A stretch of 64,000 nucleotides of DNA from positions 5,744,693-5,808,692 of the forward strand of contig OY811988.1 in the NCBI GenBank assembly GCA_963681505.1. Direction: 5' to 3'. The position numbers and the translations under genes are program-made. The stretch is from Eunapius fragilis. Taxonomy: Eukaryota > Porifera > Demospongiae > Spongillida > Spongillidae. The notes beneath the pieces were generated by a model. It saw only the letters and a program-made list of their open reading frames with translations, did no database searches and was not told where the DNA came from. This document shows positions 27,434-63,854 of this stretch, one piece after another. Within the stretch, counting starts at the first letter, position 1, and each line of letters opens with the position of its first letter.

Positions 27434-30400
27434 TCAATATTGTTCAGACATCAATCTTGCAATCTTATCGTTCCCCCTCTGTATATGAATTGAAATTGTG
27501 AGTGTGAATTGGCAATTTAAGCAAAGATACTGAATTGCTGGCGGTGGCACATTTGGAGTTGGTCCTTGTGGTTTCCATTGTGTGGGGACAGACTGGGCAC
27601 TACCAGCTCTGTCACAGTGGGCACATGTGCATTGTGCACGTGGAGGAACTGTTATAGTACAGGATATCATTTTCATCTCCGTACTACATCTTGGTAGTAA
27701 CAGGCCCTCCTCTCCACCTTCCCCCCACCTCCTTAAATAACGCACATACCAGGAGGAGGAGCTCGCTGGATCAGCTGCTTCTTAGCAATGAAGTTATCAT
27801 TTCCCGCCAACTTGAGGGCCAGCCTGTGCTGCCCTAGGTGTCTGAGGGCACTCAGGAGGTCCTCAGTGCAGGGAAACGGTTTCTCAGGAGGGGCCCAGTT
27901 CAGCCACAGGTCTAGCAGCTCCTGGAAGTAGTCCTGGTCACTTGAAATCCCCTTCTTGGACCCTATGGCGTCCATCTCTCTCAGGGTAAACCCTAGCTCC
28001 CTCCCAATGTCCCTCCATTTTGCCTTGGCGCTCTGAACGATGGCAAAGAGAGAGTCCACATCTTCTGGATCAAGCAGATGGACCATGCCATCATCTGAAA
28101 CACAAAGTGATACACACATGAAGGAATATTCCTATAGACAGCAGGGGGAGGGGGGGTTTCCCCTCCCCACTAGCAATGACAACAACCAAACAGTACAGAG
28201 GTGTGTGGAGATGAGAACATGTGCTAGATTCATCACCACCCCCACCTCCACTCCCACTTCCCTCCATTTGTAAGGCCCAAAGACAAATGTGAATGAAACC
28301 AAATAACACTACACATCCCTCCCGGCTAACAGAAGACTGTACAAGAATAAACAGAAAACATCAGGTCACTGCTCTACATGGATTGGGTCGCTCGCTCTAT
28401 GACTTGATAGTTCTTTTCATCATAAATTTATCCCCGCTTTCGAAGGTATGGGCCAGTTTCTTCAGCTTTGCCTTCCCCAGAGTTCCCACTAGGTCCTCTG
28501 TGTTAAGACCTGTAGGGCGGAGCCCAATTCAGCCATTGGTCAAGGAGCTCCTCAAGGAAGTCTACGGGGGTGTTGTTCTTGGGTATCAAGTTGTCGAGCT
28601 CCTTGAGTTTGAAGCCAAGATGGCGTCCGATCTCCCTCCACTGAGGGGCAGCACTCCTCACTGCTCCAAGCAGGTCAGACAGATCTTCCAGATCTAACAG
28701 GTGGCCGTACTCAACTGAATGAAATGGAGGTATGTAGTATTTTGACTACGTTTGATTTTGAGAAACTAATCATAGAGCTATACACAGCCTAGTTAAAGCC
28801 ACCATAAACTAACACACAATCAGGAGTGCTAACAGTACACTGTGCTTTTTTGTGAGGGAGGTTGAAGGAACCAAAGTACCAATACAATGATATATTGACA
28901 AGAACAGAGATAATTGTTTTTCCTTGGTGGTGTGATAGGAACAATGTGGGGCGGAGGGGTGGGGGGTGGGGGAAGAAGTGAAAGGGGTTAATTTCATCTC
29001 CTGATGTGAATGCAAATCAAAATTTGCCACGTCCGTATATCTTTGCAGCCATACAACCTTTCTTTTCAAATTTTCTACACTTATTTCCACACCATTCCTT
29101 GCTACAGAAGTTGATTTTCACACTCTACATTTTGCTGGCCAAAATGAATAGAGAATACATTGATGTAAAGATAACCCAACAATGGCTGATGTAGCTAGAC
29201 ATGGTCCCAAACTAAACGTTTTATCGCCCAAACACCCAGTGAGTGGTAGGACGAATGTTATGACAGGTCCTCCACCTTAGCTGTATCGTCTCTGTAACAC
29301 CTACATAATATTAATGTACTCCATGGCAACCATGGCAACACCTTAAAGGGATTACAACCACAACCACACACCCACAACCCTTTCCCCACAGAAAAACACA
29401 CAACTTCCCTCCTAGTAATAAGGATCACTGGTCATTCCATACTTAATTGAACCACCCTAGTCTCAAGCAGAAGTAACATTTTCTACCCCAAGAAGTATAT
29501 GTACATGTATATAATCTTAAGTTATTCAGTTTATGAAATATAACCGTTATAATAATAACCTAGTTATGGCTATGCTAGGGAATCATACATGTACTGAAGG
29601 GTACAGTGTGGGCGTACTCATTAGTAATGCAATGTGTTACATAAGTCACAAGATGTTATTGATATCATGAATATTGGATTTTAAAGTACATAAGAATTCA
29701 TTAAACCAAATTGCACCAATTTTTTTTTTGGGGGGTGGTGGCTGCTAATGCCAATAAGGGTTCAAGCTTGTAAGTATTTTGGGAAACAAAAACACCGGGC
29801 TGGGACACCCTATGTAAAAGCTGGCAGCCATTTTTGTGTCCACCCTTAAAGTTGTTATGATCAAGTGGGTTTACATAGCACTCTTACGCGTAAATGCCAA
29901 TGTATTACACAAAATTTGGTGGGTTGTCTATAAAAACATCGGCATTTACACGTACTGTACTATGTAAACCATAAGGTGACATTAAGAGAAGGTGCCATTA
30001 ACAGCAGAGTGTCAAGAGGTGCCATTAACAGGGTGTCAAGAGAAGGTGCCATTAACAGGGTGTCAAGAGAAGGTGCCATTAACAGGATGTCAAGAGAAGG
30101 TGCCATGAACAGGGTGTCAAGAGAAGGTGCCATTAACAGGGTGTCAAGAGAAGGTGCCATTAACAGGGTGTCAAGAGAAGGTGCCATTAACAGGGTGTCA
30201 AGAGAAGGTGCCATTAACAGGGTGTCAAGAGAAGGTGCCATGAACAGGGTGTCAAGAGAAGGTGCCATTAACAGGGTGTCAAGAGAAGGTGCCATTAACA
30301 GGGTGTCAAGAGAAGGTGCCATTAACAGGGTGTCAAGAGAAGGTGCCATTAACAGGGTGTCAAGAGAAGGTGCCATTAACAGGGTGTCAAGAGAAGGTGC

Positions 30401-40369: not shown

Positions 40370-40900
40370 AAAAAAAAAACAGTCTAAAAACTTCTTTTCC
40401 CGATCCCTCCCTCCCTCCTCCCTTGTCCCCTCCCTGGATATACCCGAAAGGACCTGGCATTTCATCGCGAGGGTTGGGGGGCTTCTGCAGGTGTGGGCGG
40501 AGGAGTGTGAGCCAGGGGGAGGTGTGGTAATGGTGGAAGGTGGGGGGAGGGGAGCATGGGAGGTGAGGGCATGGAGGCGTACAGTGGTGGAAGTGGAGGG
40601 ATGACGGATGTTTGCGGGGGTGAGGGAGGGAGGGGGAGGTGGGGGAGTACGGTGGGGTGTCAGGGTGGTGGTTGAACAAGGGCGAGGTGTTTGGGTGTGG
40701 AAGGGTGAGGGGAGAGGGCGATGGGGAGGCCGTCCATGGGGTGGCAAAGAAGATCCTACTATCCATCCAGGTGAGCATTCAGCATTAAGGAGTACTTCAG
40801 ATGAAGGTTGTATATGGCCTTCCACAGGGGATGCAGTGGCAGTTGGTGTGGTAGCCTCGTGACCTTCATCTGCAGTTGGTGTGGTAGCCTCTTGTGCTGA
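40370..40900 (-). pseudogene. Inverted partial copy of the Pro-rich exon
   Basis: On the minus strand a Pro/Thr/His-rich open region ends with DEMPGPFGYI, close to GEMPGPSGYV in exon 5 of the plus-strand gene at 37837-38717. Upstream it reads EATTPTADEGHEATTPTATA. The frame ends abruptly in lysine/phenylalanine-rich sequence and enters the 40-bp satellite at its 5' side. It is likely a broken paralogue, but could be an exon of an undetected gene. Confidence 0.35.
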
Positions 40901-43050
40901 GACCTTCATCTGAAGTTGGTGTGGTAGCCTCTTGTGCTGAGACCTTCATCTGAAGTTGGTGTGGTAGCCTCTTGTGCTGAGACCTTCATCTGAAGTTGGT
41001 GTGGTAGCCTCTTGTGCTGAGACCTTCATCTGAAGTTGGTGTGGTAGCCTCTTGTGCTGAGACCTTCATCTGAAGTTGGTGTGGTAGCCTCTTGTGCTGA
41101 GACCTTCATCTGAAGTTGGTGTGGTAGCCTCTTGTGCTGAGACCTTCATCTGAAGTTGGTGTGGTGACCTCTTGTGCTGAGACCTTCATCTGAAGTTGGT
41201 GTGGTAGCCTCTTGTGTTGAGACCTTCATCTGAAGTTGGTGTGGTGACCTCTTGTGTTGAGACCTTCATCTGAAGTTGGTGTGGTAGCCTCTTGTGCTGA
41301 GACCTTCATCTGAAGTTGGTGTGGTAGCCTCTTGTGCTGAGACCTTCATCTGAAGTTGGTGTGGTAGCCTCTTGTGTTGAGACCTTCATCTGAAGTTGGT
41401 GTGGTGACCTCTTGTGTTGAGACCTTCATCTGAAGTTGGTGTGGTAGCCTCTTGTGCTGAGACCTTCATCTGAAGTTGGTGTGGTAGCCTCTTGTGTTGA
41501 GACCTTCATCCGAAGTTGGTGTGGTAGCCTCTTGTGCTGAGACCTTCATCTGAAGTTGGTGTGGTAGCCTCTTGTGTTGAGACCTTCATCTGAAGTTGGT
41601 GTGGTGGCCTCTTGTGTTGAGACCTTCATCTGAAGTTGGTGTGGTAGCCTCTTGTGCTGAGACCTTCATCTGAAGTTGGTGTGGTAGCCTCTTGTGTTGA
41701 GACCTTCATCTGAAGTTGGTGTGGTGGCCTCTTGTGTTGAGACCTTCATCTGAAGTTGGTGTGGTAGCCTCTTGTGCTGAGACCTTCATCTGAAGTTGGT
41801 GTGGTAGCCTCTTGTGTTGAGACCTTCATCCGAAGTTGGTGTGGTAGCCTCTTGTGCTGAGACCTTCATCTGAAGTTGGTGTGGTAGCCTCTTGTGTTGA
41901 GACCTTCATCTGAAGTTGGTGTGGTAGCCTCTTGTGTTGAGACCTTCATCTGAAGTTGGTGTGGTAGCCTCTTGTGTTGAGACCTTCATCTGAAGTTGGT
42001 GTGGTAGCCTCTTGTGCTGAGACCTTCATCTGAAGTTGGTGTGGTGGCCTCTTGTGTTGAGACCTTCATCTGAAGTTGGTGTGGTAGCCTCTTGTGCTGA
42101 GACCTTCATCTGAAGTTGGTGTGGTAGCCTCTTGTGTTGAGACCTTCATCTGAAGTTGGTGTGGTAGCCTCTTGTGTTGAGACCTTCATCTGAAGTTGGT
42201 GTGGTAGCCTCTTGTGTTGAGACCTTCATCTGAAGTTGGTGTGGTAGCCTCTTGTGCTGAGACCTTCATCTGAAGTTGGTGTGGTGGCCTCTTGTGTTGA
42301 GACCTTCATCTGAAGTTGGTGTGGTAGCCTCTTGTGCTGAGACCTTCATCTGAAGTTGGTGTGGTAGCCTCTTGTGTTGAGACCTTCATCCGAAGTTGGT
42401 GTGGTAGCCTCTTGTGCTGAGACCTTCATCTGAAGTTGGTGTGGTAGCCTCTTGTGTTGAGACCTTCATCTGAAGTTGGTGTGGTAGCCTCTTGTGTTGA
42501 GACCTTCATCTGAAGTTGGTGTGGTAGCCTCTTGTGTTGAGACCTTCATCTGAAGTTGGTGTGGTAGCCTCTTGTGCTGAGACCTTCATCTGAAGTTGGT
42601 GTGGTGGCCTCTTGTGTTGAGACCTTCATCTGAAGTTGGTGTGGTAGCCTCTTGTGTTGAGACCTTCATCTGAAGTTGGTGTGGTGGCCTCTTGTGCTGA
42701 GACCTTCATCTGAAGTTGGTGTGGTGGCCTCTTGTGTTGAGACCTTCATCTGAAGTTGGTGTGGTAGCCTCTTGTGTTGAGACCTTCATCTGAAGTTGGT
42801 GTGGTAGCCTCTTGTGTTGAGACCTTCATCTGAAGTTGGTGTGGTAGCCTCTTGTGTTGAGACCTTCATCTGAAGTTGGTGTGGTAGCCTCTTGTGTTGA
42901 GACCTTCATCTGAAGTTGGTGTGGTAGCCTCTTGTGCTGAGACCTTCATCTGAAGTTGGTGTGGTGGCCTCTTGTGTTGAGACCTTCATCTGAAGTTGGT
43001 GTGGTAGCCTCTTGTGTTGAGACTTTCATCTGAAGTTGGTGTGGTGGCCT
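40860..43050. repeat. 40-bp satellite array, about 54 copies, with higher-order structure
   Basis: The unit is built on GACCTTCATCTGAAGTTGGT followed by GTGGTAGCCTCTTGTGCTGA. Variants at fixed positions (GCTGA/GTTGA; TAGCCT/TGGCCT/TGACCT; rare CCGAAG) form blocks. The rare CCGAAG variant recurs at 41510, 41830 and 42390, spaced 8 and 14 units apart. Confidence 0.97.
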
Positions 43051-43640
43051 CTTGGTGCTGCATCAATTGAAGCCTTTTGCCCCTGGTGAGAATTTTCATC
43101 TTACCTCATATAATGTCATGTGATCCAAGTGTGGTCTTTCCCTGCAGTGGCAATATGATTCCCTTGGGATGATATGGCGTCCAGTTGAAGCCTATGCCCC
43201 TGGTGAGATTTTTCATCTTACCTTCGTATGATGTCATGTGATCCAAGTGTGGACTTTTTTTCATTTACCTTCGTATGATGTCATGTGATCCAAGTGTGGT
43301 CTTTTTCTGCAGTGGCAATATGACTCCCTTGGGATGATTTGGCATCCAGTTGAAGCCTTATGCCCCTGGTGAGATTTTTCATTATACCTTTGTGTGATGT
43401 CATGTGACCCAAGTGTGGACTTTTTCTGCAGTGGCAATATGACTCCCTTGGCATCTGGTTGAAGCCGTAAGCCCCTGGTGAGAATTTTCATCTTACCTTC
43501 GTATGATGTCATGTGATCCAAGTGTGGACTTTTTCTGCTGTGGCAGTATGACTCCTTTGGGATGATATGGCATCCAGTTGAAGCCTTATTCTCTTGGTGA
43601 GAATTTTCGTCTTATCGTTTTATAATGCCATGTGATTCAA
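43051..43640. repeat. Tandem repeat of about 140-bp units
   Basis: Four degenerate copies containing TCATGTGATCCAAGTGTGG, CTGCAGTGGCAATATGA and GCCCCTGGTGAGA. Downstream (43844-43895, plus) is a 52-bp exon-like stretch, LLAFPDYAMQVFDCYLQ, between CCTCCAG and GTGAGG, with no partner found. Confidence 0.85.
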
Positions 43641-48429: not shown

Positions 48430-48870
48430 TCTGTAGAGGTTACTGCCAACTTTAGAGGTTACAAGTATTAGGTGACATCTGTAGAGGGTACTAGTATTAG
48501 GTGACATCTGTAGAGGTTACAGGTATTAGGTGACATCTGTTGATGGTACAAGTATTAGGTGACATATGTAGAGGGTACAAGTGTTAGGTGACATCTGTAG
48601 AGGGTACAAGTATTAGGTGACATCTGTAGAGGGTACAAGTGTTAGGTGACATCTGTAGAGGGTACAAGTATTAGGTGACATCTGTAGAGGGTACTAGTAT
48701 TAGGTGACATCTGTAGAGGTTACAGGTATTAGGTGACATCTGTTGATGGTACAAGTATTAGGTGACATATGTAGAGGGTACAAGTGTTAGGTGACATCTG
48801 TAGAGGGTACAAGTATTAGGTGACATCTGTAGAGGGTACAAGTATTAGGGGACATCTTTAGAGGACAAAA
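48430..48870. repeat. 29-bp minisatellite in the gypsy LTR
   Basis: About fifteen units with TTAGGTGACATCTGTAGAGG then GTACAAGTA. The same motif occurs once in the other LTR-like ends (AAGTGGCATCTGTAGATG near 51906), so the array grew from LTR sequence. Confidence 0.93.
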
Positions 48871-50089
48871 AAATAAACCATCTGACAGAGGTTTCCTATA
48901 TTCCTGTGTATCTCTGTCTCCTCACACTCCAGCAGAATATTTCATATCCATCTCCACCATCACTTTTCTTAGTTGGACCGAAGTAGGTTACATAAATCCT
49001 GCTGAACCATATGTGTTATACTAGTGACACTGATTGGTATTACAGTGATAAGCCTGATGCATTGGCTGCAAATTGCCTGTCCTTGCCTCTTGCCGTTTGT
49101 AAATGTCTGAGTTCTGACAAAAGACAGGGCTTGTACAATATACCACCTCCAAATGAATGTTAAAATACTCTTTAACATGTATACACTATACAAAATCCAC
49201 CAATAGCTTTTATAGGTGGTTTCCATTAGGGGTACGTGAGAACAGATCACTCTATTGGTTCTCCTGTAGCGTCCAGTCAAGAGCAGCTTATATATTATCT
49301 GATGACGTAATTTACATGGAAGACACTCCTCTTCCCATCTTCTGCGAACAAGCTGGTTTGTCCTAATAAGGCATCTACATTGCAGTTGAGCCTTCACTTC
49401 ACTTTGAAAGGATACAGCTTCAGACCCAGACTTCACCTGATGTGTTTTGTGTTGTCCTCCTTTCAGGCAGTCGATCCACTCCTGGGTAGCCCATACTGTG
49501 AAGGATATCCATAGGAGGCATACCTGGAAGGCATGGGTCAATTGCCATGCACTCCTTCTCAATGATGGAGTACCACCTTTCCCATGGTAGTAGCTTCTTG
49601 CTGAAGTAGGCCACTGGATGAACACTTGTTTTCAGTAAGACAGCCCAGCTCCAACTCCTCAATCTGATGCATCCTTCTTAAGTGCAAAGGGACGCTTGAA
49701 GTTTGGGCACTTCAGTACGGGACTTATTGACAGGTGCTGCTTTAACGCCTCAATTGACTTGGGCACTCAACACCAGGCGATTGGGCTGTTGCTTTTTGGT
49801 CAGCCAGTGGGGCTGCGAGTGTGGTGTACTTCATTGTATCGCATCTACTTCATATTGAGCACTGGGAATGCCTCCACTGCAGCTACTTTGCCTTTCTCTG
49901 ACTGAACGTGCCCATTTCTCACTTGGCCCAGTAGTGCATTCTATGTTTGGCACTGGCTCTTGTCCCTCTACAACCAACCTCAGGAGCAGCTTAAAACAGT
50001 ATATCAATTTTGAAGTAATAATTGATGACGTGTGGAAGGGGTTACACCGTTTTAAAACCACTGCATAAAAATACTCCACTGGTCCATTG

Positions 50090-50345
50090 GATGTAAGTTG
50101 GTGCTTCCAATACTCTTCACAATTTCTTTAAACTACTTATTGACATTATTGGATGCAAGGTGGTGCTTCCAATACTCCACACAAACTACTTATTGACATT
50201 ATTGGATGCAAGGTGGTGCTTCCAATACTCCACACAAACTACTAATTGACATTATTGGATGCAAGGTGGTGCTTCCAATACTCCACACAAACTACTAATT
50301 GACATTATTGGATGCAAGGTGGTGCTTCCAATGCTCCACACAGTT
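50090..50345. repeat. About 53-bp tandem repeat inside gypsy copy 1
   Basis: Five units containing ATTGGATGCAAGGTGGTGCT and TCCAATACTCCACAC. Copy 2 has only about two units at the same place (56535-56625), so expansion followed the duplication. Confidence 0.92.
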
Positions 50346-54609: not shown

Positions 54610-57600
54610 CTGCTAGTGTAGAGGGTCCCATAAGCTATCAAGCAGAGGATTCTACGGAATAATAAAGAAGGCTTATACTGAACTACCAGACATTCACTTG
54701 GCAGGTCCACATGTGCAAAATCAAATACGGTAGTCATGCTGCTTTCCCCCTGTGCTAGCAGCAGTGAAGGTTTGGATCTGGTCTGCCATTACTTAATTAC
54801 TGTATCTTCTGCTCTTTCGCTTTTGTGGAGGTACTGAGGGAAGATGGCAGCCAAATTCCAAGCTGTATTAGTCAAGGTTAGGAATATTGATAAGTACTCC
54901 AGCAATCTTCTTTATGGACATTACGTCTACTTAAGTGAGGTATTAGAAATATAGGTCTAAGAATTAGGTGACATCTGTAGAGGGTACCAGGATTAGGTGA
55001 TATCTGTAGAGGGTACAAGTATTAGGTGACATCTGTAGAGGTTCCAAGTATTAGGTGCCATCTGTAGAGGGTACAAGTATTAGGTGACATCTGTAGAGGT
55101 TCCAAGTATTAGGTGACATCTGTTGATGGTACAAGTATTAGTTGACAAATGCAGAGGGTACATGTATTAGGTGACATCCGTAGAGGTTAAAAGTATTAGG
55201 TGACATCTGTAGAGGGTACAAGTATTAGGTGACATCTGTACAGGTTACAAGTATTAGGTGACATATGCAGAGGGTACAAGTATTAGGTGACATCTGTAGA
55301 GGGTACAAGCATTAGGGGACATCTTTAGAGGACAAAGAAATAAACCATCCGACAGAGGTTTCCTATATTCCTATGTATCTCTGTCTCCTCACACTCCAGC
55401 AGAATATTTCATATCCATCTCCACCATCACTTTTCTTAGTTGGACTGATGTAGGTTCCATAAATCCTGCTGAACCATATGTGTTATACTAGTGACACTGA
55501 TTGGTATTACAGTGATAAGCCTGATGCATTGGCTGCAAATTGTCTGTCCTCGCCTCTTGCCATTTGTAAATGTCTGAGGTCTGACAAAAGACAGGACTTG
55601 TACAATATACCACCTCCAAATGAATGTTAAAATACTCTTTAACCTGTATACACTATACAAAATCCACCAATAGCTTTTATAGGTGGTTACCATTAGGGGG
55701 TACATGAGAACAGATCACTCTATTGGTTCTCCTGTAGAGTCCGGTCAAGAGCAGCTTATATAATATCTGATGATGTAATTTACATGAAAGACACTCCTCT
55801 TCCCATCTTCTGCCAACAAGCTGGCTTGTCCTGATAAGGCATCTGCATTGCGGTTGAGCCTTCACTTCACTTTGAAAGGATACAGCTTCAGACACAGACT
55901 TCACCTGATGTGTTTTGTGTTGTCCTCCTTTCAGGCAGTCGAACCACTCCAGGGTGTGATGGTCAGTTCATACTGTGAAGGATATCCATAGGAGGCATAC
56001 CCGGAAGGCATGGGTCAATTGCCATGCACTCCTTCTCAATGATGGAGTACCACCTTTCCCATGGTAGTAGCTTCTTGCTGATGTAGGCCACTGGATGAAC
56101 ACATGTTTTCAGTAAGACAGCCCAGCTCCAACTGCCCAATCTGATGCATCCCTCTTAAGTGCAAAGGGATGCTCGAAGTTTGGACACTTCATTACGGGAC
56201 TTGTTCACAGGTGCCGCTTTAACGCCTCAAATGGGCTGTTGCTTTTTGGTCAGCCAGTGGAGCTGCAAGTGTGGTGTACTTCATTGTAGGAAAGCTCTCT
56301 CACATCTACTTCATATTGAGCGCTGGGAATACCTCAACTGCAGCTACTTCGCCTTCCTCTGACTGAACGTGCCACTTGGCCCAGTAGTGCATTCTAGGTC
56401 TGGCACTGGCTCTTGTCCCTCTACAACCAACCTCAAGATAAGCTTAAAACAGTATATTAATAATTGATCACGTATGGAAGGGGTTACACCATTTTAAAAC
56501 CACTGCATAAAAATACCCCACTGGTCCTTTGGATGTATGGTGGTGCTTCCAATACTCCACACAATTTCTTCAAACTACTTATTGACATTATTGGATGCAA
56601 GGTGGTGCTTCCAACCATCTTCACAACTCCATGCCTCGACTTAAAAAAAAAGCTTGTCTTTCCCATGCTTGTGAACAACCATTGATTAAAACAACATCCA
56701 TCAATACTCCAATACTATTGACTCCAATACATTTTCTGATCCATCTCATTGCGAAAGTTCTCATTGCCTTATTTACCTACTTGCCATTTCTTTTGAATGC
56801 CACGGAATATAAAGCAAATCACACTGTTCTACAGAATCACACTTGTCACTACAGAATAAAGTCACACTTCATATGAGTTGTCCTTTAGTATCAATCCAGT
56901 AGCTAAATGACAAATGAACTTCCTGTAGGCCTAAGAAAACTACCAGGTGTTGGCCATTCCACAATTGCCTTCACTTTTGCTTCATCTGAGGCAAAACCTA
57001 TTTCTGTAAAGACACTACCTAGGTATGTCACTTTGGAGCTCCCTCACAATGTGAATCTTGCTATTTTCAACCAAACACACACACACACACACAAAATGAA
57101 TGGTGGTTAGATGAACCCCAATACCCAACTTTGTAGGTCCAGCTTGGTGGATATTGTAGCTTCAGCAACCTACCGTTAGACTTCCCCTATCAGTGCGAAT
57201 GGATATGCATCCTGGTGGTCAACTTGTGATAATCCATGCATGGTATAGGTATAATGCTTCAAAGGATGTGACATCATCCCATATAAGGAGCCATAACTCC
57301 ACTGGAGTAATAGTGAAACCACTGAGAGTAGTCCATGTTCTTTAAAGAAGTCTGTACCCAGAATTCCAGGCGTAATGAGATCCTTGACTACAATGAACTT
57401 ATGTGATTTCACCAAGCCCCCAACTGCCACCACTGCTTTAACATGATCCAGGATGGGCTAGGATGGGTATTCCATCTCCTGTTGCTGATATCAACTGAAG
57501 TACATACTCCCATTGATACACTCAGCTATTCCTGCTTAAGAAGTGCCGGAGAATATCCAAATTGAACATTATTATTATTTCTAGCAGGAGATTGCTAGAA

Positions 57601-58581: not shown

Positions 58582-61500
58582 TCACACTGACCTAAGGTCA
58601 CGTGAGTGGGTCACCTGAAACACGACTGATCCCTGAGTCTCTCTGTCACTATGGCGACCACGGTCCATGAGCTTCATGACATGGTGCTCGGACTGACCAT
58701 CTCGTGGGAGGGGCAAGGTCACCTGACCCATGAATCTGTCCACAACAGCATTCTTGTTCCATACCTTCAGGTGAATGTGGGAGAAGGGGTGATATGGGGA
58801 GGAGATGGTGGTATGGGGAGGAGGTAGTGGTAGGGGGAGGAGGTGGTTGCATGGGGAGGAGGTGGTAGTATGGGGTGGTGTATGGGGAGGTGATGGTGAA
58901 GGTGAAGGTGATAGGTAAAGCATCAAGAAGATGCAATAGTATCCCATGTGGAAATAGTGGTGAGTAAACATGGTTTATCACGTCGTGTATGCAATTGTTA
59001 TATAAATTCTTACGGTGATCAACAATCACTGTTATCTCCCAATGGGACGACACGTCCACTTGACCGGGTGCACAACGGACCACAAGATCAAGCTATGCCA
59101 CTATCCTTCCTCCTCCCCATTCCACTCCCTCCACCTCCTCCCTCCCCCTCCCCTCACACCCTCTCTCCTCTCTCCTCTCCTCTCCTCTACCCCTCTCCAT
59201 CCCTCCTCCTCCTTCCTTTCTTCCACACCAGGACACGCGCTCCATATAGCTACTATGTATTTGCCAGGACTTCAATACTTGCTGCATGCACATGTACGTG
59301 TACCTCAATTTTGACGTTGGCCGTTTCGGGACGTTTGATATAAAATAGAAGACTGGAATCAAACTTTGGCTCCAAAGTGCCTTTTTGCACAGGTGTGGTG
59401 CCTCTGGTCTTCTCCACGGTAACAATGCAGTAAGGATCAGCTCCTGGTATTTGTGTTGTCAACATTGGTCATGTACACCATCACTCTCCCCCCCCTCTCC
59501 CTCCATTTCCTCTTCCTCCTCCCTCCCTCCCCTCTCACCAGCTCCAATCAGATCTTGCTTGGCTAACCCTGTGGCACTCGCCATTTCGACTGTCACCACT
59601 GCCTGCGGTGACTTCACGCAGCAACAGCAGAGGTAACCAAGGCAACCTCTAGGAGGGACGTCATACCTCAGCTCTCTGATAGAGGGAAAATATTGTGACC
59701 ACACCCTAAGAGTAACTGACCACACCCTAAGAGCGACTGACCACACCCCTACAATGCATGAATAACAAAATCTAATGCATGCAACATACTTATACAGCGT
59801 ACATACATAATTAATCCCTCACATATGGGCTCAGGTCATGTGACATAGGGCTTAGGTCATGTGACAACCCTCCACATACAGATTGAGGTCATGTGACCAC
59901 CCTCCACATATGGGCTCAGGTCCTGTGACCACCCTCCACATATGGGCACAGGTCATGTGACCTTACCTCGCCCTGTTAGCATGCTCGGTGTACATCCTGA
60001 TGTAGAAGGCCCTCAGGTACCCAGGCTCAAAGGTGGATGGGATTACAGCATAGCGGCCAGGCTTCAGCGTATATTTGCCAAATACACCAATCCTGTTGGC
60101 GTGTGTGATGGAAGTAATATGCTCTGGAATGCGGTGCAACCGACAGCTTCTGTTCTCCTCAACCTTCAAGGAGGAGAAATATGTTATCTCGGGTAACTAT
60201 TCTGTTTTCCCCAAACATCCCCATCCTCTCCTCTCCCTTTGCTCTTCCTCTCCTCTCCCTCCCCTCTCCTCTCCCTCCCCTCTCCTCTTCCTCTCCCTCT
60301 CCTCTTCCTCTCCTCTCCCTTTGCTCTTCCTCTCCTCTCCCTCCCCTCTCCTCTTCGTCTCCCTCTCCCTCTTCCTCTCCCTCTCCTCTTCCTCTCCCTC
60401 TCCCTCTTCCTCTCCTCTCCCTCTCCTCTTCCTCTCCCTCTCCTCTTCGTCTCCCTCTCCCTCTCCTCTTCCTCTCCCTCTCCTCTTCCTCTCCCTCTCC
60501 CTCTTCCTCTCCCTCTCCTCTCCCTCTCCCTCTCCTCTTCCTCTCCTCTCCCTCTCCTCTCCCTCCCCTCTCCTCTTCGTCTCCCTCTTTCTCATCTCTA
60601 TTTCCCTCTCCCTCCTCTCTCCTCCCCACTTCTCACCCACATGCAGACATATGTGCCTAGGTTCATTTTGTGCTGAAGGTGCTACACAGCTGTCCAGTGA
60701 TACCTCCCTCCTCCTCCCTCTTCACACACAGCTGTCCTGGTGATACCTCCCTCCTCCTCCCTCTTCACACACAGCTGTCCTGGTGATACCTCCCTCCTCC
60801 TCCCTCTTCACACACAGCTGTCCTGGTGATACCTCCCTCCTCCTCCCTCTTCACACACAGCTGTCCTAGTGATACCTCCCTCCTCCTCCCTCTTCACACA
60901 CAGCTGTCCTGGTGATACCTCCCTCCTCCTCCCTCTTCACACACAGCTGTCCTGGTGATACCTCCCTCCTCCTCCCTCTTCACACACAGCTGTCCCAGTG
61001 ATACCTCCCTCCTCCTCCCTCTTCACACACAGCTGTCCCAGTGATACCTCCCTCCTCCTCCCTCTTCACACACAGCTGTCCAGTGATACCTCCCTCCTCC
61101 TCCCTCTTCACACACAGCTGTCCTAGTGATACCTCCCTCCTCCTCCCTCTTCACACACAGCTGTCCTAGTGATCTGGCTAAAAGCATTTGCCTTAATATT
61201 GATCCATGCATGATATAGGCCATTCATTGCCAGCCCCTCATTCTTTTTTCACCATGAACACATCACATCCAATGGAGCACCCCTCCCTGCCCCTCACCTA
61301 GAACACATCACACCCAATGGAGCACCCCTCCCCCTCACCATGAACACATCACATCCAATGGAGCACCCCTCCCCCTCACCATGAACACATCACACCCAAT
61401 GAAGCACCCCTCCCCCTCACCATGAACACATCACACCCAATGGAGCACCCTTCCCCCTCACCATGAACACATCACACCCAATGAAGCACCCCTCCCTCCC

Positions 61501-63854
61501 CCTCACCATGAACACATCACACCCAATGGAGCACCCACCCCTCCCCCTCACCTTGAACACATCACACCCAATGGAGCACCCTTCCCCCTCACCATGAACA
61601 CATCACACCCAATGAAGCACCCCTCCCTCCCCCTCACCATGAACACATCACACCCAATGGAGCACCCCTCCCCCTCACCTTGAACACATCACACCCAATG
61701 GAGCACCCTTCCCCCTCACCATGAACACATCACACCCAATGGAGCACCCTTCCCCCTCACCATGAACACATCACACCCAATGAAGCACCCCTCCCTCCCC
61801 CTCACCATGAACACATCACACCCAATGGAGCACCCACCCCTCCCCCTCACCTTGAACACATCACACCCAATGGAGCACCCTTCCCCCTCACCATGAACAC
61901 ATCACACCCAATGAAGCACCCCTCCCTCCCCCTCACCATGAACACATCACACCCAATGGAGCACCCTTCCCCCTCACCATGAACACATCACACCCAATGG
62001 AGCACCCTTCCCCCTCACCATGAACACATCACACCCAATGGAGCACCCTTCTCCCTCACCATGAACACATCACACCCAATGGAGCACCCCTCCCCCTCAC
62101 CATGAACACATCACACCCAATGGAGCACCCATCCCTCCCCCTCACCATGAACACATCACACCCAATGGAGCACCCTTCTCCCTCACCATGAACACATCAC
62201 ACCCAATGGAGCACCCCTCCCTCCCCCTCACCTTAAACACATCACACCCAATGGAATAGTTTCTACCAGCCTTAGCATCACCAGTATCCCCCTGAGGGGA
62301 TGCAGCTGCACGTCTGGTCTGGGCACTACCCTTAAGGTCACGTGGATCCTTCTGTAGCAGGTTAATCATCACCTCTGATTCTGCTGTCACGTCTAAGATA
62401 TACTGTGTGGAGGTGTGGGGTAGGGTGTAGGATGTGGGGTGGGTGTAGAATGTGGTGTGGGATGAGTGCAGGATGGGTGTAGAATGTGGTGTGGTGTGGG
62501 TGTAGGATGTGGGTTGCAATGGTGTGTAGAGCAGTGTACATGGTTATGCATGGCAAGGTGGCTCAGTGACCCCAATGACTAATAGTGCACTTTTAAATGT
62601 ATGTCGCTAGTTTTTTGGACATGATAATTACATTTTGTGTGTATCGAGGACTTTGAAGGGTGAGGAATTTGACAGCACACCGGAGCAGAGCTATGATGGT
62701 ACCCAGAGGTTCACAAAGAGCGACATGATAAGAAATGATTCAGACTAAGTCTCTTTCTGTCCAATTCCAAACCATACGCATAAAGGGTCCATTATTAAGT
62801 TTTGATCTTTTAATTATACAGTGGGTTAAATGCACCTTATGCTGCACTTGAGGGGTTAAATGCACCTCGTGCTGCACTTAAGGGTTAAATGCACCTCATG
62901 CTGCACTTGAGGGGTTAAATGCACCTTGTGCTACACTTGAGGGGTTAAATGCACCTTGTGCTGCACTTGAGGGGTTAAATGCACCTTGTGCTACACTTGA
63001 GGGGTTAAATGCACCTCGTGCTGCACTTGAGGGGTTAAATGCACCTTGTAGAATACTGAGAGGTTAAATGCACCTTGTGCTGCACTTGAGGGGTTAAATG
63101 TACCTCGAGCTTCACTTGAGGGGTTAAATGCACCTCGTGCTGCACTTGAGGGGTTAAATGCACCTTGTGCTGCACTTGAGGGGTTAAATGTACCTGAGGG
63201 TTGGTCAGGAATGTGTCCAGATTATTCAGACACCCTCCTGAGGTGGCCTCAGTCCATTCACCATGGAATGAGGATTCGTGCCATCTCTTCTGTAGGCTGA
63301 GGACCCGGGTGTTGATGAGGTAACATATGCTGGCCTCTGTGAAGTGTGTACACCAGTCTTTGGCCTCCATCCTATAGAGGGAGGGAGGGAGGGAGGGAGG
63401 GAGGGAGGGGAGAGGTACAAATTATTAACTGCCATAGCAACCATGACACCACACACATATAACACCACATATAACACCACATATAACACCACATGTAACA
63501 CCATATAACACCACCACATATAACACCATATAGCACCACATATAACACCATATAACACCACCACATATAACACCATGACACCACACACATATAACACCAC
63601 ATATAACACCACATGTAACACCATATAACACCACCACATATAACACCATATAGCACCACATATAACACCACATATAACACTATATAACACCACCACATAT
63701 AACATCATATAGCACCATATATAACACCACATATAACACCGCATATAACACCATCACATTATGATTATGTACTTACCAAAACTCTCCCTCATCCTGCGTT
63801 GAGATGCCAAGCCTTTCACGTTCTGATTTGGGAATCCTATTCCACTCTTCTGAG
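58582..63854 (-). CDS. CAPN5: Calpain-5-like protease, C-terminal part
   Basis: Seven exons in the window: 63854-63777, 63371-63194, 62402-62232, 60163-59967, 59675-59539, 59443-59304 and 58764-58582; all GT-AG, phases consistent, 360 residues to TGA. Order: end of the protease core (EWNRIPKSERERLG, QDEGEFW), the C2-like domain III (HESSFHGEWTEATSGGCLNN, then VEENRSCRLHRIPE, FGKYTLKPGRYAVIPSTFEP) and a terminal C2 domain (LIGAGADPYCIVTVE, TPVQKGTLEPKFDSSLLFY). This layout, with C2 instead of EF-hands, marks the calpain-5/6/TRA-3 group, cytosolic calcium-regulated proteases. The catalytic Cys, His and Asn exons lie beyond the right edge, so activity cannot be judged. Introns are packed with minisatellites, three of which start at splice donors. 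Confidence 0.92.
59815..59966. repeat. About 37-bp repeat starting at a calpain donor
   Basis: Four units with CATATGGGCTCAGGTCATGT and GACCACCCTCCA. On the minus strand the first unit begins within the donor of the exon ending at 59967 (GTAAGGTCACATGACC). Confidence 0.87.
60226..60610. repeat. CCTCTC/TCTTCC polypyrimidine repeat
   Basis: Dense CTCTTCCTCTCC units in a calpain intron; open frames on both strands are artefacts. Confidence 0.93.
60690..61172. repeat. 43-bp minisatellite in calpain intron
   Basis: Eleven to twelve nearly identical units with TGATACCTCCCTCCTCCTCC and CTTCACACACAGCTGTCC. Confidence 0.95.
61240..62235. repeat. Minisatellite made from a calpain exon end plus its donor
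   Basis: About twenty units of roughly 40-50 bp. On the minus strand each reads TCCATTGGGTGTGATGTGTT, then C(A)AG or CATG, then GTGAGGGGGAGG, that is the last 24 bases of exon 62402-62232 followed by its 5' splice site. The array starts at the true junction. Confidence 0.95.
62395..62515. repeat. GGATGTGGGGTGGGTGTAG repeat
   Basis: Degenerate 19-24-bp units directly upstream of an acceptor of the calpain gene; on the minus strand they supply a C/T/A-rich tract before the splice site. Confidence 0.85.
62815..63193. repeat. 30-bp minisatellite starting at a calpain donor
   Basis: Twelve or so units with GGGGTTAAATGCACCTTGTG and CTGCACTTGA. The true donor CCTCAG|GTACATTTAACC is itself a variant of the unit (CCTCAAGTGCAGCACAAG|GTGCATTTAACC). 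Confidence 0.95.
63388..63758. repeat. GGGA run and ACACCACATATA repeat
   Basis: (GGGA)n at about 63388-63411. Then, from 63445, a 13-14-bp ACACCACATATAAC array with a longer period of about 120 bp marked by ATGACACCACACACAT. Confidence 0.92.

What the first reader, a model, noticed from the sequence alone, without database searches (positions are those of the whole stretch)
61240..62235. Minisatellite built from an exon-intron junction
About twenty tandem copies contain the last 24 coding bases of a calpain exon (reading SIGCDVF) plus the GTGAGG donor. A spliceosome would meet many equivalent 5' splice sites in one intron. Use of a downstream copy would add repeated peptide or shift the frame. 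This looks like recurrent slippage anchored at the junction.
Basis: seen in the sequence. Interest (0 to 1): 0.78.

Follow-up and report, generated by a model that had tools for sequence, protein, structure and literature searches.

The report
Repeats copying a calpain splice junction
In a freshwater sponge, the end of one calpain exon together with its splice signal has been copied about two dozen times in a row into the following intron; such junction repeats are already known from amphioxus, and here they recur at several exons of two calpain genes and once in a myosin gene.

Summary
On the minus strand, 24 head-to-tail copies (41 or 45 bp) run from window 62255 to about 61249. Each carries the last 24 nt of a calpain domain III exon (SIGCDVFK), with one to three substitutions in the intronic copies, plus the donor. 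Copy 1 is the exon itself; 23 lie in the intron. The window fits chromosome 18 of the freshwater sponge Eunapius fragilis.

The donors are not equivalent: 18 of 23 decoys read ATG|GTGAGG against AAG|GTGAGG at the exon, 3 match the exon, 1 is intermediate, 1 nearly dead. Only the first decoy keeps the frame open. Array starts are not fixed: 9, 11, 17, 24 or 48 nt inside the exon in the five cases found.

Among 97 donors and 100 acceptors of calpain, myosin and kinesin exons, 5 donors (4 of 12 calpain, 1 of 66 myosin, 0 of 19 kinesin) and 0 acceptors have an array reaching 8 nt or more into the exon.

This kind is known: amphioxus 'mirages', reported to leave splicing intact. New member of a known kind, most likely an intronic passenger; RNA was not testable.

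The parts
62232..62402 (-). Calpain exon (domain III part, ..NYSIGCDVFK|gtgagg), phase 0; its last 24 nt are copy 1 of the array
   Evidence: (joined protein)
61249..62255 (-). Junction-spanning minisatellite, 24 copies of 41/45 bp (24 exonic nt + donor + rest of intronic part), 23 copies intronic; 299-bp higher-order period
60164..62231 (-). The host intron, 2068 nt, of which 1843 are covered by TRF rows
60684..61173 (-). Second array in the same intron, 43-bp unit of different sequence (11.4 copies)
60224..60593 (-). Third array in the same intron (purine-rich on the gene strand, periods 6, 11 and 17)
59967..60163 (-). Next calpain exon (VEENRSC..HANRA + AG|gtaagg)
59821..59962 (-). 32-bp array starting 4 nt after that exon's donor (abuts, contains no exon sequence)
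63194..63371 (-). Calpain exon (MEAKDWCTHFTEAS..TNPQ|gtacat)
62823..63195 (-). 30-bp array (12.5 copies) whose edge lies 2 nt inside that exon
63777..63854 (-). Calpain exon (SEEWNRIPKSERERLG..GEF + TG|gtaagt)
63446..63759 (-). 12/59-bp array beginning 17 nt after that donor

Best explanation
A short tandem duplication once straddled the 3' end of a calpain exon and its 5' splice site. Because the first exon end and donor stayed intact, the extra copy was simply intron. It was then amplified to 23 intronic copies by ordinary minisatellite turnover (slippage, unequal exchange or conversion, with block duplications of about 299 bp). The spliceosome most likely keeps using the first donor, which borders the real exon and has, with three decoys, the best score, so the array is mainly an intronic passenger. 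Occasional use of the first decoy would add 15 residues in frame; any later decoy gives a frameshift or a stop. This is the sponge counterpart of the amphioxus 'mirages', by likeness and not by descent. Shown: anatomy, copy number, donor contexts, frames, local uniqueness, recurrence. Inferred: origin by duplication plus turnover, dominant use of the first donor, near-neutrality.
For: The unit contains exon end plus donor. All 23 intronic copies have TTC where the exon has TTT, and blocks repeat at 299 bp, so the copies evolve together but not with the exon. All 5 matches of the array lie in the array. Calpain identity and splice phases agree across exons, and Cys, His and Asn contexts of the calpain triad (triad recalled) are readable upstream, so the gene looks intact. 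TRF rows cover 1843 of 2068 nt of the intron. Arrays abut exons more often than they enter them: of array-bearing sites (edge within 60 nt) 5 of 40 donors and 0 of 32 acceptors have the edge 8 nt or more inside the exon, as expected if invasion is tolerated only when the original site survives. Amphioxus mirages have the same anatomy, with splicing reported as undisturbed (PMC3087553, section 16).
Against: No RNA evidence. Three of 23 decoys match the true donor in score; in the His-exon array 2 of 2 and in the WSDG-exon array 6 of 8 recognised decoys score at least as high as the true donor, so decoy use cannot be excluded by sequence. The ATG state of most decoys may be a founder effect and not silencing. 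Four of the five junction arrays lie in the two calpain genes, which simple random seeding does not predict.
Confidence: 0.8

Rival explanations
1. The array is a functional splice-choice device: alternative donors are used, giving calpain isoforms or NMD-targeted transcripts that tune calpain dose with array length.
For: 23 donor-like copies, 3 scoring like the real one; the first decoy is open and in frame and would add 15 aa. A human minisatellite is, by the title of Turri et al. 1995, a provider of multiple splice donor sites (reference entries seen).
Against: 20 of 23 decoys score lower and 1 of 23 keeps the frame open; the commonest unit length, 41 nt, is not a multiple of 3; amphioxus mirages reportedly do not disturb splicing.
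Confidence: 0.12
2. Something about 5' splice sites makes them hotspots for minisatellite birth (for example G-rich RNA:DNA hybrids at intron starts), so arrays are seeded there actively.
For: Arrays near donors are G-rich on the gene strand (mean skew +0.31, 23 of 33 positive), those near acceptors C-rich (-0.62, 2 of 22 positive), p 1.6e-5 (one mis-picked donor included); array coverage 30-70 nt into myosin introns 0.35-0.39 from the donor against 0.23-0.26 from the acceptor; exon-invading arrays at 5 of 97 donors, 0 of 100 acceptors.
Against: Non-calpain sites with a near array: 26 of 86 donors against 17 of 89 acceptors, p 0.11. Exon invasion given an array: 5 of 40 against 0 of 32, p 0.061. 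The coverage difference turns round deeper in: 130-190 nt in, 0.19-0.25 from the donor against 0.26-0.30 from the acceptor. Array-free intron starts are also mildly G-rich (+0.18, 40 of 65 positive). Array units in general show no excess of donor motifs. Amphioxus mirages occur at both boundaries.
Confidence: 0.2
3. Assembly artefact: the copy number or the array itself is a collapse or expansion error.
For: The assembly has 802 gaps and was heavily curated.
Against: About 118x HiFi coverage and QV 60.4 are reported. The array (about 1 kb) is much shorter than usual HiFi reads (read length recalled), copies differ from each other, and like arrays stand at other exons.
Confidence: 0.03

Closest known systems
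'Mirages' of amphioxus (Adh3; globins BflGb6 and BflGb9)
   Same: Minisatellite-like tandem duplications spanning an exon-intron boundary, many copies carrying AG/GT signals, homogenised within the cluster with the cluster boundary left out (PMC3087553, section 16).
   Different: Other phylum and other genes; amphioxus units 10-72 or 150-160 bp; 3' intron ends are affected there too, while 0 of 100 acceptors here carries 8 or more exon nt; splicing and length instability are untested here.
Human minisatellite with multiple splice donor sites (Turri et al. 1995; gene 6-16/IFI6 recalled)
   Same: By its title, a minisatellite that supplies several splice donors in an interferon-induced transcript (reference entries only; paper not held).
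   Different: By the title the donors are provided to the transcript; here use is untested and only the first decoy is in frame and open.
Ordinary intronic minisatellites
   Same: Unit length, block duplication, local uniqueness; many such arrays fill introns in this genome.
   Different: This unit includes 24 coding nt and the donor of the neighbouring exon.

Membership tests
Mirage (exon-intron-boundary minisatellite) | Tandem array whose unit spans an exon-intron boundary | tested here: met
   24 exon nt plus donor in the unit, array 61249-62255
Mirage (exon-intron-boundary minisatellite) | Unit of minisatellite size (10-72 bp in Adh3, about 150-160 bp in globins) | tested here: met
   41 or 45 bp
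Mirage (exon-intron-boundary minisatellite) | Copies carry splice signals | tested here: met
   GT in 23 of 23 intronic copies, GTGAGG in 22
Mirage (exon-intron-boundary minisatellite) | Homogenisation within the cluster, boundary copy excluded | tested here: met
   23 of 23 intronic copies have TTC, the exon TTT; 299-bp blocks. Judged from copies of one haplotype, no tree made
Mirage (exon-intron-boundary minisatellite) | Regular splicing undisturbed | not testable with these tools
   No RNA reads on hand; run ERR11641155 is named in PMC12616128
Mirage (exon-intron-boundary minisatellite) | Length polymorphism, also somatic | not testable with these tools
   No reads or second haplotype on hand
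Minisatellite providing used alternative donors (Turri et al. 1995) | Transcripts using several donors of the array | not testable with these tools
   Sequence only; 3 of 23 decoys equal the true donor in score
Dispersed repeat or transposon | Unit occurs elsewhere in the genome | tested here: not met
   5 of 5 matches lie in this array; the search skips simple repeats and very common words

The most novel reading that the evidence does not exclude
In this sponge, 5' splice sites are preferred birthplaces of minisatellites: G-rich intron starts seed arrays that often abut donors and now and then swallow the exon end, so that introns grow and decoy donors are made continually, and the phenomenon seen in amphioxus is a general animal process acting mostly at donors. 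Calpain genes would be extreme cases (4 of 12 donors).
Probability: 0.17. Interest if true: 0.65.

Novelty: new member of a known kind. Interest (0 to 1): 0.42.

Why it matters
Junction minisatellites give a natural series of near-identical donors in one intron, a direct test of how the spliceosome picks one of many 5' splice sites, and they are a proposed step towards new introns. Finding them in a sponge, three in one gene, suggests that the amphioxus case is not a peculiarity of one lineage. The individual array is most likely a neutral passenger.

Tried and rejected
Motif-only test: units of 44 arrays are not enriched in strong donors over shuffles (score 4 or more: 4 of 44 against 12.2%). 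Codon-bias exon finding was dropped: trained on 13 of 30 kinase loci, it scored the five calpain exons between -2.8 and +5.4, and the training also rested on a wrong locus orientation. Searches assumed that loci are turned to the match strand; one search showed that they are not, so their splice-site counts are discarded and replaced. One myosin 'junction echo' (C9:1129190) was a wrongly picked donor: the real exon ends SNNKK|gtacat and the array only abuts it; it is left out but is still in the counts. RNA folding of the first copies is unremarkable (z +1.37). A dispersed-repeat origin is not supported. In one search the in-frame stop for the C19 array was computed one base off and is not used. 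The papers of Canestro 2002 and Turri 1995 are not held, so I know them only through citations. No sponge report of such arrays was seen in the listings (titles and abstract openings) of 'minisatellite + sponge + intron' (15 of 16 listed) and 'freshwater sponge + tandem repeats + introns'; among these I did not open PMC2267160, a sponge population paper that holds all three terms, nor PMC3902484, which holds 'mirage', 'minisatellite' and 'amphioxus'.
Full report
WHAT IS THERE. On the minus strand the window ends in a calpain gene. Five exons (63777-63854, 63194-63371, 62232-62402, 59967-60163 and one starting at 59675) can be joined in phase; the joined protein matches Calpain_III (2.1e-22) and Peptidase_C2 (1.2e-9) and aligns with m-calpain. 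The peptide of exon 62232-62402 alone hits no Pfam family. This exon ends in TCC ATT GGG TGT GAT GTG TTT AAG (SIGCDVFK) followed by gtgaggggga. From 62255 to 61249 this junction is repeated: 24 copies, 14 of 41 bp, 9 of 45 bp and a degenerate last one, the first being the exon end itself. So 23 copies lie in the intron. A 299-bp higher-order period shows block duplication. The intron is 2068 nt long and 1843 of these are covered by TRF rows, mostly from three arrays with different units.

WHERE IT IS FROM. The window lies at G000:C18:5744693-5808692 of a genome of 218,937,333 bases in 24 contigs. C18 has 6,262,926 bases, C19 6,159,499 and C24 28,504. This fits the genome note of Eunapius fragilis, a freshwater sponge: 218.91 Mb, 23 chromosomes, chromosome 18 of 6.26 Mb, 19 of 6.16 Mb, mitochondrion 28.5 kb, about 118x HiFi, QV 60.4 (PMC12616128, section 5 read in full; other passages). 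The identification is mine, from these numbers.

ARE THE DONORS EQUIVALENT? Of 23 decoys, 18 read ATG|GTGAGG (5.4), 3 read AAG|GTGAGG (7.4), 1 reads TAG|GTGAGG (6.0) and 1 reads ATG|GTGAAA (0.4). The inferred genuine donors in my sample have a median of 3.3 and an upper quartile of 5.6 (scores slightly lowered by a distance penalty), so most decoys would pass as donors on sequence alone. Reading on from the exon, the first in-frame stop comes at +87. The decoy at +45 is in frame and open and would add 15 residues; the decoy at +86 shifts the frame; the other 21 lie after the stop. All 23 intronic copies have TTC where the exon has TTT, so the array is homogenised within itself and not with the exon. 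Whether the weak ATG state was selected or comes from one founder copy cannot be told.

IS IT ALONE? No. Upstream in the same gene (L032) two more arrays swallow an exon end: one at ..GHAYCVLDVRK|gtgggtg, which holds the histidine of the calpain triad (triad recalled; 53/42 bp, 48 exon nt), and one at ..WSDG|gtacgt (16 bp, 11 exon nt). In these, 2 of 2 and 6 of 8 recognised decoys score at least as high as the true donor, and in-frame stops come at +12 and +10. A second calpain gene on C19 has one at ..ALGNCW|gtaagg (40 bp, 17 exon nt). A myosin gene on C2 has an irregular one at ..LPPH|gtaagtcacat (21 bp, 2.1 copies by TRF plus looser copies by eye, 9 exon nt).

HOW COMMON? I took the exon matches of PF00063 (87 matches; 67 donors and 70 acceptors could be placed), calpain exons (12 and 11) and 27 of 72 PF00225 matches (19 and 19), placed the splice sites by frame and score, and ran TRF. 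One myosin donor was mis-picked and is left out, which leaves 97 donors and 100 acceptors. An array reaches 8 or more nt into the exon at 5 of 97 donors (calpain 4 of 12, myosin 1 of 66, kinesin 0 of 19) and at 0 of 100 acceptors; one kinesin acceptor has 5 nt. Given an array with its edge within 60 nt of the site, that is 5 of 40 against 0 of 32, p 0.061. By the stricter echo test (score 10 or more), calpain has 4 of 12 and, in a table whose cells I entered by hand, the other families 0 of 86, p 1.4e-4, or 3 of 11 without the starting case, p 0.001. In that table the mis-picked myosin donor, which scored 19, was entered as no case, and the myosin case on C2 scores 9 and falls just under the threshold. 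Exons of one gene are not independent, and the calpain genes were looked at because of the finding, so these p-values flatter the contrast. Splice sites were inferred, not taken from an annotation.

BACKGROUND. Tandem repeats of all periods cover 26% of the window. In myosin introns, coverage by arrays of 10-150 bp is 0.35-0.39 at 30-70 nt from the donor and 0.23-0.26 at the same distance from the acceptor, but at 130-190 nt it is 0.19-0.25 against 0.26-0.30; in myosin exons it is 0 to 0.03. In calpain introns it is 0.53-0.75 from +10 on at the donor side (the mis-picked donor is included). Sites with an array edge within 30 nt: donors 22 of 67, 7 of 12, 4 of 19; acceptors 14 of 70, 5 of 11, 3 of 19 (myosin, calpain, kinesin). 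For non-calpain sites the donor excess is not significant (p 0.11). Arrays near donors are G-rich on the gene strand (mean skew +0.31, 23 of 33 positive) and those near acceptors C-rich (-0.62, 2 of 22 positive), p 1.6e-5; array-free intron starts have +0.18 and array-free intron ends -0.05. The donor arrays may therefore in part only amplify what intron starts already look like. Array units in general show no excess of strong donor motifs.

HOW IT MOST LIKELY WORKS. A tandem duplication that straddles a donor leaves the first exon end and donor intact, and the new copy is intron. Such a duplication is tolerated and can then expand as any minisatellite does. The edge counts agree with this: arrays often come up to the exon and seldom enter it. 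I expect the first donor to be used and the array to be a passenger, with rare use of the +45 decoy. That last step is inferred; there is no RNA here.

WHAT IS KNOWN. Minisatellite-like tandem duplications of exon-intron boundaries were named 'mirages' in amphioxus Adh3 and found again in globin genes; many copies carry AG/GT signals, regular splicing is reported to be undisturbed, clusters vary in length, somatic instability is reported at Adh3, homogenisation spares the cluster boundary, and both boundaries can be affected (PMC3087553, section 16 read in full, and passages; Canestro et al. 2002 seen only as its reference). A human minisatellite providing multiple splice donor sites is cited from Turri et al. 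1995 (title in reference lists). The present array meets the anatomical features of a mirage; splicing and polymorphism could not be tested. I therefore file it as a new member of a known kind, by likeness and not by descent. The listings of my paper searches (titles and abstract openings) showed no report of such arrays in sponges; the library holds only open-licence papers.

Noticed in passing
L071 (G000:C2:13124001-13133200), donor near 13132690: Myosin exon ending LPPH|gtaagtcacat is followed by irregular repeats of the junction (9 exon nt), perhaps a junction array at an early stage.
   Followed up: partly
L032:746-1108 and L032:352-505: Two more junction-spanning arrays in the same calpain gene, at the exon with the His and at the exon with the Asn of the calpain triad (triad recalled).
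   Followed up: yes
L039:6746-7147 (G000:C19): Second calpain gene with a 40-bp array built on the exon end ALGNCW|gtaagg.
   Followed up: partly
introns of the calpain, myosin and kinesin exons sampled: Arrays near donors are G-rich on the gene strand, arrays near acceptors C-rich.
   Followed up: partly
48453-50342 and 54959-57457: Two similar stretches, each with a 29-bp array of the same unit and similar ORFs that look retroelement-like (label recalled, not tested).
   Followed up: no
40861-43054: 40-bp array of about 55 copies, 97% matches.
   Followed up: no
27736-28131 and 28506-28745, minus strand: Two ORFs with similar sequence (..LLDPEDVDSLFAIVQSAKAKWRDIGRELGF.. and ..LLDLEDLSDLLGAVRSAAPQWREIGRHLGF..), death-domain-like by eye; not searched.
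   Followed up: no
G000: C18, C3, C13, C15: Many kinase-domain open frames clustered on a few contigs.
   Followed up: no
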